DNA from: Candidatus Aenigmatarchaeota archaeon
Lineage (GTDB): Archaea; Aenigmatarchaeota; Aenigmatarchaeia; QMZS01
NCBI GenBank assembly: GCA_016932615.1
Contig: JAFGCN010000007.1
Location: 62,001-126,000 of the forward strand
Direction: 5' to 3'
Length of the DNA stretch: 64,000 nucleotides
The notes beneath the pieces are model-generated. The model was not told where the DNA came from. It was given only the letters and a program-made list of their open reading frames with translations, and searched no databases. Positions 40,732-64,000 of this stretch are shown here, piece by piece (the first letter of the stretch is position 1; the number at the start of each line of letters is the position of its first letter). The position numbers were made by a program, and so were the translations under genes.

Positions 40732-41358
40732 CTAGGACTTAGACGCAAAAACGCTGATCCAGGTTCCATTGTTTTTGTTTTTTACCAAAACCTTCTCCAC
40801 CTTAAATCCCGCTGAACCTAGCAACGCTTCAAATTCTTCCCGTGTGTAGAACGCAAAGAATTTCGCGCTTCCGTTGTAATAATCCTTCCTTACGAACTTT
40901 TCTCCCTCTCCCTGCTTTACTGAAATAAACATGAGGCCGCCCGACTTTAGAATTCTGCTAAATCCCTCCAGGGTGGATTTTGCCTGGTTTTTTGGTATGT
41001 GCAGAAAAGAAGCGGTCGCCCATAATCCGTCAAAGGAACTGCCCGGAAAATCCATATGCCTCATGTCCATGAAAATAACCTTGGCCTGGGGCACATTTTT
41101 CCGGGCAATCTCAAGAAATGCTTTCGACAGTTCTATTGCCGTTACATCAAGCCCTTTTTCAGAAAAATACTTTGCGTCCCGTCCGGGACCGCACCCAATG
41201 TCAAGAACTCTTTTTCCGGGAACGCGCGCCACAAACTCGTCCATAATCTCCCTGAACTCTTCAAGCCCCGACCAGCCCTCACCATATATTTCATCGTAGG
41301 TTTCGGCGTAGCCGTCATAAGTTTTTATCGTATCCGGTACAGGGTCTTTTGGTTCCAT
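40732..41358 (-). CDS. Class I SAM-dependent methyltransferase
   Basis: 208 residues. N-terminal YDGYAETYDEIYG, motif I VLDIGCGPGRDAKYFSEKG, then AIELSKAFL, VIFMDMRHMDFPGSSFDGL, and LKSGGLMFISVKQGEGE with a C-terminal YTREEFEALLGSAGF. Small-molecule methyltransferase of the UbiE/type-11 class. The substrate is unknown. It is transcribed away from the HerA-like gene. Confidence 0.85.
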   Translation of the reverse strand: MEPKDPVPDTIKTYDGYAETYDEIYGEGWSGLEEFREIMDEFVARVPGKRVLDIGCGPGRDAKYFSEKGLDVTAIELSKAFLEIARKNVPQAKVIFMDMRHMDFPGSSFDGLWATASFLHIPKNQAKSTLEGFSRILKSGGLMFISVKQGEGEKFVRKDYYNGSAKFFAFYTREEFEALLGSAGFKVEKVLVKNKNNGTWISVFASKS

Positions 41359-41402
41359 ATAGAAGGTAGAGTTTCTTTTCCTAAAAAGAAAAAGATTCAG
41401 TT

Positions 41403-51817: not shown

Positions 51818-51931
51818 AACTTAAAAACCAAATATATATACCACACACAACCAATTAAAACAGCTAAAAAGATTATTTTCCAATCTACTTATGGGCTCGT
51901 AGTCCAGCTCGGTTAAGACGTCTCCTTGACA

Positions 51932-52019
51932 TGAAGCTTTTCTTTTCAAAGAAAAGCCCCAGGCGCAAAAGAAACCGAATTCCTGCTTCGCAGGGATAAT
52001 TTCCGCGCATGGCTCAAAA
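51932..52019 (+). other. tRNA-Val intron 1, between positions 37 and 38
   Basis: 88 bases. Bulge-helix-bulge: anticodon stem TCTCC/GGAGA, central helix TTGA (51926-51929) with TCAA (52014-52017), 3-base bulges CAT and AAT around the cuts. Begins TGAAGC and carries a GCTTTTCTTT/AAAGAAAAGC hairpin (51936-51957). The canonical intron site. Confidence 0.88.
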
Positions 52020-52041
52020 TGGAGAAGATCCCCAGTTCAAA

Positions 52042-52117
52042 TGAAGCTTTTTCTTGCAAGAAAAAGCTCCATGACCAAAAAGAAGCAGATTCGTGCTTCA
52101 CACAATAAAAATGAAAA
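52042..52117 (+). other. tRNA-Val intron 2, between positions 59 and 60 in the T-loop
   Basis: 76 bases. Bulge-helix-bulge: T-stem CCCAG/CTGGG, central helix TTCA (52036-52039) with TGAA (52112-52115), 3-base bulges AAT on both strands. Begins TGAAGC like intron 1 and carries a 24-base palindrome (52045-52068). Confidence 0.88.
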
Positions 52118-52166
52118 TCTGGGCGGGCCCATATATTCAAAATATTTTGGAACTGTTTTCTTGAGG

Positions 52167-52190
52167 GGGCCTGACGGCGGCCCATTTTTC
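52167..52190 (+). terminator. Possible terminator after tRNA-Val
   Basis: GGGCC (52167-52171) and GGCCC (52179-52183) form a stem followed by ATTTTT. Archaeal termination usually needs only the T-run, so the hairpin may be incidental. Confidence 0.35.
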
Positions 52191-63832: not shown

Positions 63833-63982
63833 GGTATGTTTTTTGGGCCCGACGCGATTTTCGGTGGCGTCTTTTCGGACATCCTTATTCGAATTCGCGG
63901 ACAAGCACCCCTTTTTGGGAGATGTTTTCTCGCGCGACACCCGGATATCTTTGTGCACCGTTTTTACCTGTCGTCATAGGGC

Positions 63983-63993
63983 ATTATATTAAT
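63983..63993 (-). promoter_or_regulatory. Candidate TATA box of the rpoH-rpoB2-rpoB1 operon
   Basis: On the minus strand this reads AATATTATGC-like AT-rich sequence (TTAATATAAT). It lies 25-35 bases before GTG 63958 and about 150 bases before ATG 63832, so either rpoH has a 5' leader of about 125 bases or its start is further upstream. Confidence 0.4.
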
Positions 63994-64000
63994 ACCCTCA

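What the first reader, a model, noticed from the sequence alone, without database searches (positions are those of the whole stretch)
51893..52131. tRNA-Val(GAC) with two bulge-helix-bulge introns, one inside the T-loop, that look related
Seen directly: both introns begin TGAAGC, both have a long purine/pyrimidine hairpin next to the 5' splice site, and both 3' ends are AAAA before T. Each site forms a 4-bp central helix (TTGA/TCAA and TTCA/TGAA) flanked by 3-base bulges, stacked on the anticodon stem and T-stem respectively. Intron 1 is at the canonical 37/38 site, intron 2 at 59/60. Known: multiple and non-canonical introns occur in some Thermoproteota and DPANN tRNAs, and intron spread has been proposed. 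Inference: one intron arose by copying the other into a second loop of the same gene.
Basis: partly seen in the sequence, partly recalled or inferred. Interest (0 to 1): 0.8.

Follow-up and report, generated by a model that had tools for sequence, protein, structure and literature searches.

The report
Triplex-type introns spread through archaeal tRNAs
The two insertions in this archaeal valine-tRNA gene are two copies out of dozens of a dispersed intron that interrupts almost every tRNA gene of the genome, and all copies share a sequence pattern in which a pyrimidine stretch, its complement and a mirror-image third strand change together, suggesting a mobile element built around a three-stranded nucleic-acid structure.

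Summary
Window 51893-52131 is a tRNA-Val(GAC) with two bulge-helix-bulge (BHB) introns, at 37/38 (51932-52019) and 59/60 (52042-52117), related over about 60 nt. The inference that one was copied from the other within this gene is not supported: each has closer relatives in other tRNA genes, and sister-genus orthologues have the 59/60 intron but not the 37/38 one.

The larger finding is genome-wide. In this Aenigmatarchaeota-related genome I reconstructed 37 tRNA genes; all are interrupted, by 65 introns, and 54 of 65 show a full BHB core. In 44 of 65 the same module lies 3-10 nt after the 5' splice site: pyrimidine tract Y1, hairpin partner R1, linker, and purine tract R2, the mirror of R1 (parallel complement of Y1). 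Y1 and R2 lengths covary within the genome and across 40 genomes of the class (140+34 matched, 6 mismatched), a three-strand relation that base pairing cannot explain. Formally it is a class II intrastrand-triplex motif. Some copies lie outside tRNAs, several between 15-42 bp direct repeats.

Best reading: an archaeal introner-like mobile element. Dispersed tRNA introns, intron saturation and triplex motifs are each known; their combination appears new. The mobilising enzyme and the triplex itself are unproven.

The parts
51893..51931 (+). tRNA-Val(GAC) exon 1 (nt 1-37)
51926..51929 (+). BHB core 1, exon side (TTGA), pairs with 52014-52017 (TCAA)
51932..52019 (+). intron 1, 37/38, 88 nt
51938..51945 (+). 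intron 1 Y1 tract TTTTCTTT
51948..51955 (+). intron 1 R1 tract AAAGAAAA, Watson-Crick partner of Y1
51967..51974 (+). intron 1 R2 tract AAAAGAAA, mirror of R1
52014..52017 (+). BHB core 1, intron side (TCAA)
52020..52041 (+). tRNA-Val(GAC) exon 2
52036..52039 (+). BHB core 2, exon side (TTCA), pairs with 52112-52115 (TGAA)
52042..52117 (+). intron 2, 59/60 in the T-loop, 76 nt
52048..52055 (+). intron 2 Y1 tract TTTTTCTT
52058..52065 (+). intron 2 R1 tract AAGAAAAA
52077..52084 (+). intron 2 R2 tract AAAAAGAA, mirror of R1
52112..52115 (+). BHB core 2, intron side (TGAA)
52118..52131 (+). tRNA-Val(GAC) exon 3
52155..52185 (-). degenerate reverse-oriented relative of the element 3' of the gene; a fuller copy lies 3' of Val-TAC (C11:13404-)
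   Evidence: read from the sequence

Best explanation
The gene makes a tRNA-Val(GAC) precursor whose two introns are copies of one dispersed intron family. Splicing (inferred from structure): the tRNA splicing endonuclease EndA cuts at the two BHB motifs and the exons are joined. Origin (inferred from comparison): the family is an introner-like mobile element that has invaded almost every tRNA gene of this Aenigmatarchaeota-related genome at the anticodon loop, T-arm and D-loop, plus a few non-tRNA sites; intron 2 is older and shared by the Val genes, intron 1 is a later, separate gain. The shared module Y1-loop-R1-linker-R2, 3-10 nt after the 5' splice site, is under three-strand constraint (shown by covariation): R2 is the mirror of R1. 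The rule that A stands opposite U/T-A and G opposite C-G, with R2 antiparallel to R1, is that of a purine-motif (class II) intrastrand triplex. Because that motif is reported not to form in RNA, and because the constraint also holds in non-tRNA copies, I favour a fold of the element's single-stranded DNA that serves its own mobility (about 50%) over an RNA tertiary fold that aids splicing (about 35%).
For: 37 tRNA genes on 13 contigs, all recognised with the expected isotype after splicing, 65 introns, 44 with an exact module; 54/65 full BHB cores against 9.3% when intron ends are swapped. Whole-stem parallel complement found downstream in 46/55 hairpins defined without R2 (permutation mean 22.7, maximum 34 of 5000); T-count equals A-count in 45/55 (mean 13.8, maximum 24); asymmetric stems: mirror 34, direct copy 6. 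Class-wide exact patterns, T-count of Y1 by A-count of R2: 4/4 140, 5/5 34, 5/4 1, 4/5 5 (Fisher p 3e-30, not corrected for relatedness); direct-copy control 0 of 156 genomes. 44 sense against 2 antisense copies in introns, Y1 at a nearly fixed offset. 10 of 150 elements lie between direct repeats of at least 12 bp (null 0.5%), up to 42 bp in L242. Reverse-oriented copies in the Trp and Leu-CAA introns and 3' of Val-TAC and Gln-TTG. Sister-genus Val-GAC lacks intron 1. EndA present with a loop like that of Nanoarchaeum, a broad-specificity enzyme.
Against: No RNA data: splicing is not shown. No mobilising enzyme found; Y1 transposase PF01797 is absent from this genome and from G032, the genome with 15 near-identical copies. 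Long direct repeats flank only a minority of copies and none of the clear tRNA introns. [quoted passage not shown] The nearly fixed offset from the 5' splice site and the sense orientation also suit an RNA role. About 9 of 55 copies break the mirror rule (three of these are register artefacts of my stem finder).
Confidence: 0.72

Rival explanations
1. RNA-level version: the module is a tertiary fold of the intron RNA in which the A-rich R2 strand docks in the groove of the Y1:R1 hairpin (topology of loop 3 of an H-type pseudoknot). It compacts the intron and presents the 5' splice site to EndA; spread of the introns is secondary.
For: 44 sense against 2 antisense; Y1 starts mostly 6-7 nt from the 5' splice site; Y1:R1 pairs with mean probability 0.82 while R2 is mostly unpaired (0.34); topology allows it.
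Against: A minor-groove A-rich strand would not need G exactly opposite C-G; the reverse-Hoogsteen version is reported not to form in RNA (PMC4666352); the covariation also holds in copies between protein genes.
Confidence: 0.35
2. One reading: one intron arose by copying the other within this gene.
For: The two introns are related.
Against: The sister intron ranks 12th/13th of 54; closer relatives lie in other tRNAs; the sister genus has only the 59/60 intron.
Confidence: 0.04
3. Ordinary vertical history: old tRNA introns spread by tRNA gene duplication and conversion, with low-complexity purine tracts that look alike by composition.
For: The Val-TAC and Val-GAC T-loop introns are 59/61 identical and their 3' flanks are alike.
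Against: Nearly identical modules occur in unrelated tRNAs and in different loops; mirror beats direct copy 140 to 0 class-wide; copies occur outside tRNAs, some in reverse orientation.
Confidence: 0.08
4. H-DNA in the double-stranded gene: R1 and R2 form a homopurine mirror repeat that makes intramolecular H-DNA and affects transcription or replication; Y1 only gives the hairpin.
For: R1-linker-R2 is a homopurine mirror repeat in every exact copy.
Against: H-DNA needs no Y1 on the same strand; arms of 6-11 nt, with non-mirror linkers of 5-17 nt, are short for H-DNA (own knowledge).
Confidence: 0.12

Closest known systems
Transposed tRNA introns of Thermoproteales (Fujishima et al. 2010, as described in PMC4090602 and PMC4033280)
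   Same: [quoted passage not shown] inferred spread at DNA level; several introns per gene.
   Different: Other phylum. Here a covarying three-strand module, copies outside tRNAs, direct repeats around some copies, reverse-oriented copies, and one gene with four introns (PMC4033280 gives three as the maximum there). Sequence homology to those introns was not tested.
Intron-saturated tRNAs of Asgard Atabeyarchaeia and Freyarchaeia (PMC11291895)
   Same: 92-95% of tRNA genes interrupted, many non-canonical positions, 228 introns in three genomes; similar density to this genome (37/37 recovered, 65 introns).
   Different: Other phylum. The passages I read report no shared intron family or triplex module; whether they have one was not tested.
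Class II intrastrand triplex motifs (PIT elements, BoxC/TM; Holder et al. 2015, PMC4666352)
   Same: Order pyrimidine-purine-reverse-Hoogsteen purine on one strand; dispersed repeats; linked there to genome instability.
   Different: Those studied in detail are G/C-rich, with short loops, and were not reported in introns (the words tRNA and intron do not occur in the main text searched). Ours are A/T-rich with linkers of 5-17 nt and sit in BHB introns.
Introners of eukaryotes (PMC9860276)
   Same: Non-autonomous repeats that create many introns of similar sequence; target duplications in some families.
   Different: Spliceosomal introns in protein genes, 3-9 bp duplications or inverted ends; here BHB tRNA introns, no inverted ends found, direct repeats of 15-42 bp around non-intron copies only.
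tRNA-Thr intron gain in Caldiarchaeum by integration of a mobile element (PMC3293823)
   Same: Intron gain tied to mobile DNA.
   Different: A single locus with an integrase-type element; no dispersed family.

Membership tests
Archaeal BHB tRNA intron | 4-bp core with two 3-nt bulges at the splice sites | tested here: met
   Both Val-GAC introns 4/4 pairs; 54/65 genome-wide against 9.3% in swapped controls
Archaeal BHB tRNA intron | Removal restores a canonical tRNA | tested here: met
   ARAGORN recognises all 37 spliced sequences with the expected isotype
Archaeal BHB tRNA intron | Genome encodes the splicing endonuclease | tested here: met
   One EndA gene, G000:C18:45567-45839; no second subunit found, so the subunit type is open
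Archaeal BHB tRNA intron | Splicing in the cell | not testable with these tools
   Needs RNA
Dispersed (transposed) tRNA intron family | Near-identical introns in unrelated tRNAs and in different loops | tested here: met
Class II intrastrand triplex motif | Y-R-R order with R2 the mirror of R1, stem 6-15 nt | tested here: met
   44/65 introns, cores of 5-10 nt; 140+34 class-wide matches against 6 mismatched
Class II intrastrand triplex motif | Both loops short (ITxF search: 1-6 nt) | tested here: not met
   Second loop 11 nt in both window introns, up to 17 elsewhere; hence 'triplex-type', not filed as a member by the published search rule
Class II intrastrand triplex motif | Triplex forms in vitro | not testable with these tools
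   CD, NMR or probing needed
Introner / non-autonomous transposon | Target-site duplication | tested here: inconclusive
   Present for a minority (10/150 at 12 bp or more; null 0.5%), mainly non-tRNA copies
Introner / non-autonomous transposon | Matching transposase in the genome | tested here: not met
   Only PF01797 was tested; absent from G000 and G032. Other enzymes not tested
Group I intron or other Rfam family | Rfam match over the element | tested here: not met
   only tRNA matches and one weak chance match (RFPL3-AS1_2, 21.9 bits against a cut-off of 40)

The most novel reading that the evidence does not exclude
The family is a new kind of archaeal mobile element, the counterpart of eukaryotic introners: a non-autonomous element recognised through a single-strand DNA triplex, which inserts with variable target duplications and is tolerated in tRNA genes because it is removed as a BHB intron. 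It would explain bursts of tRNA intron gain in a whole class of DPANN archaea.
Probability: 0.4. Interest if true: 0.92.

Novelty: new variant of a known kind. Interest (0 to 1): 0.77.

Why it matters
How archaeal tRNA introns are gained has stayed open since their transposition was inferred in Thermoproteales. A family with a clear sequence signature, present at high copy in many genomes of one class, with young copies, apparent target duplications and non-tRNA insertions, makes the question testable. The three-strand covariation is also unusual: it implies natural selection on a triple-strand relation in dozens of genomes, in a motif whose purine-purine-pyrimidine form is thought impossible in RNA. 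Finally, tRNA genes broken at two to four places are missed by standard tools: ARAGORN found none in this window, so tRNA counts of such genomes will be wrong.

Tried and rejected
ARAGORN on the raw window and on 12 loci finds no tRNA; RF00005 finds only 6 over its cut-off in the genome, all with introns on inspection. Within-gene copying rejected. Direct duplication of R1 rejected (0 class-wide matches). Template switching or hairpin correction cannot make a mirror strand (reasoning). Rfam has no matching family. Viral contigs: 7 exact mirror matches, none by a tRNA, at least two inside coding sequence; direct-copy control 0. Y1 transposase absent from G000 and G032. A search of another phylum failed for a formal reason, and the phylum and class searches covered the same 156 genomes, so presence outside this class is untested. 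Three D-loop or anticodon boundaries (Ile, Leu-TAA, iMet) remain uncertain. Pro, Lys-CTT, Gly-GCC and some Arg and Leu tRNAs were not found. The class table is not corrected for relatedness of genomes.

Full report
What was checked. The sequence shows exactly that. Removing 51932-52019 and 52042-52117 leaves a 75-nt tRNA that ARAGORN calls Val(gac). Both 5' splice sites are followed by TGAAGC, both 3' ends read AAAA before T, and the cores are TTGA/TCAA and TTCA/TGAA. ARAGORN on the raw window finds no tRNA at all. The closest named genome by RNA polymerase subunit is Candidatus Aenigmatarchaeota CSMAG_2865 (74% identity); the genome held is 1.26 Mb in 29 contigs, 97% complete.

A family, not a pair. 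Intron 2 used as a query hits at least 18 places of the genome, and a covariance model of 18 first members gives 85 matches up to E 10, of which the strong ones are separate intron copies. From the loci I reconstructed 37 tRNA genes on 13 contigs. All 37 are interrupted; none without an intron reaches the tRNA model's cut-off. They hold 65 introns of 25-219 nt (median 80): 31 in the T-arm (one printed under 'acceptor' because that sequence lacks its last base), 23 at 37/38, 10 in the D-loop, 1 in the variable arm. Sixteen genes have one intron, 15 two, five three, and Leu-TAG four. Every spliced sequence is recognised with the expected isotype. The BHB core is complete in 54 of 65; with intron 3' ends swapped between genes it is complete in 9.3%. 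These controls make the reconstruction solid, though splicing itself is inferred.

The shared module. Forty-four of the 65 introns carry, 3-10 nt after the 5' splice site (mostly 6-7), a pyrimidine tract Y1, a short loop, its complement R1, a linker, and a purine tract R2. R2 is not a copy of R1 but its mirror, i.e. the complement of Y1 read in the same direction. For hairpins defined without looking at R2, the mirror of the whole stem is found within 30 nt in 46 of 55 (permutation mean 22.7, maximum 34), and the T-count of Y1 equals the A-count of R2 in 45 of 55 (mean 13.8, maximum 24); among asymmetric stems the mirror is present 34 times, a direct copy 6 times. Stems such as TTCTTTCTT are matched by AAGAAAGAA.

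The rule holds across the class. Over 156 genomes the exact pattern with four T and four A matches 140 times in 40 genomes and 27 genera, the direct-copy control 0 times. With five and five there are 34 matches; with five and four 1; with four and five 5. Fisher's p is 3e-30, uncorrected for relatedness, but the same linker types occur with both lengths, always matched, in several genera (for example GGCCCTTGGGTT with 4/4 and 5/5). Watson-Crick pairing cannot make this link, because Y1 and R2 are parallel. It is the sequence rule of a purine-motif intrastrand triplex of class II (pyrimidine, purine, reverse-Hoogsteen purine), as defined in PMC4666352. The published search rule asks for loops of 1-6 nt, which our linkers exceed, so I call the module triplex-type and do not file it as a member.

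Mobility. Near-identical modules sit in unrelated tRNAs and different loops. Two T-loop introns (Trp, Leu-CAA) hold a reverse-oriented copy, and reverse copies lie 3' of Val-TAC and Gln-TTG. Copies also occur outside tRNAs, for example between genes at C11:42455, right after stop codons in G098 and G099, and at gene starts in G032, which has 15 near-identical copies. Of 150 elements, 10 lie between direct repeats of at least 12 bp where random pairings give 0.5%: 42 bp at a gene start (L242), 16-21 bp in L248, L249 and L251, 19 bp of a tRNA 3' end (L236), 15 bp of a tRNA 5' end (L226); in the home genome 16 bp of Val-CAC are repeated on both sides of a copy. This looks like insertion with variable target duplication. 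No mobilising enzyme was found; only the Y1 transposase family was tested.

History of the two Val introns. The T-loop intron of Val-GAC is 59/61 identical to that of Val-TAC, and both genes share their 3' flank, so intron 2 came with gene duplication. The orthologous gene in four genomes of the sister genus has an intron at 59/60, some with the module, but none at 37/38; a Val gene of another family (G012) has none. Intron 1 is therefore most simply a later gain of a copy of another subfamily (linker GCCCCAGGCGC, shared with Glu-CTC and Leu-AAG).

How it most likely works. Shown: BHB geometry, restored tRNAs, three-strand covariation, dispersal, non-tRNA copies. Inferred: splicing by EndA, whose single gene carries the loop insertion also present in the aligned Nanoarchaeum subunit; loops of this kind are tied to broad specificity in reviewed work (PMC6379350). 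Inferred: mobility. For the triplex, the base rule fits DNA chemistry, and PMC4666352 states that purine-motif triplexes cannot form in RNA; the constraint persists in copies that are not tRNA introns. I therefore give a single-strand DNA fold used by the element about 50%, an RNA fold about 35%, something else the rest. The fixed offset from the 5' splice site suits either: one-ended recognition and cutting, or presentation of the splice site.

Comparison with what is known. Spread of similar introns among tRNAs is known from Thermoproteales (Fujishima 2010, described in PMC4090602 and PMC4033280), saturation of tRNAs with introns from Asgard archaea (PMC11291895), triplex repeats from bacteria (PMC4666352), intron-making transposons from eukaryotes (PMC9860276), and intron gain by integration of a mobile element at one tRNA locus from Caldiarchaeum (PMC3293823). 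I found no paper in the searched library that joins tRNA introns with a triplex motif; subscription journals are largely missing from it. The finding is thus a new variant of a known kind, with a real chance of being a new kind of mobile element.

Noticed in passing
G000:C7:125844-126088 (-), i.e. window 63844-64000 and beyond: tRNA-Lys(TTT) runs off the window's end. It has introns at 37/38, 53/54 and 59/60 without the module, leaving a 6-nt microexon TTCGAA between the last two.
   Followed up: partly
G000:C10:41841-42073 (-): A tRNA-Leu whose spliced anticodon loop reads CTAAGGA, i.e. anticodon AAG, unusual for an archaeon.
   Followed up: no
G000:C17:42150-42227 (+): A tRNA-like sequence with a long variable arm and no intron, just under the tRNA model's cut-off (28.2 bits).
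   Followed up: no
window 41340-41395 (-): Degenerate relative of the element (TGAATCTTTTTCTTTTTAGGAAAAG) between divergent genes, next to a start codon; similar placement to the intact intergenic copy at C11:42455.
   Followed up: partly
L262, L264, L265 (viral contigs): The same mirror architecture (GGCTACCTTTTCTTTT..GAAAGAAAAGGTAGACCAAAAGAAAACAGG) in three viral contigs, two of which carry a Flavo-1 RNA, suggesting a Bacteroidota source.
   Followed up: partly
L276 (EndA, G000:C18:45567): The conserved RKx of the catalytic lysine region reads RAK/RAR/RAS in EndA of this family and several relatives, and the protein has a long acidic N-terminal extension.
   Followed up: partly
G000:C11:11646-11834: tRNA-His has a G encoded before position 1, opposite C73, as expected for G-1.
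   Followed up: no
L212 and L217: Copies of the mirror element, or relatives of it, lie directly beside 16S rRNA gene ends in two relatives, a possible link to pre-rRNA processing.
   Followed up: no
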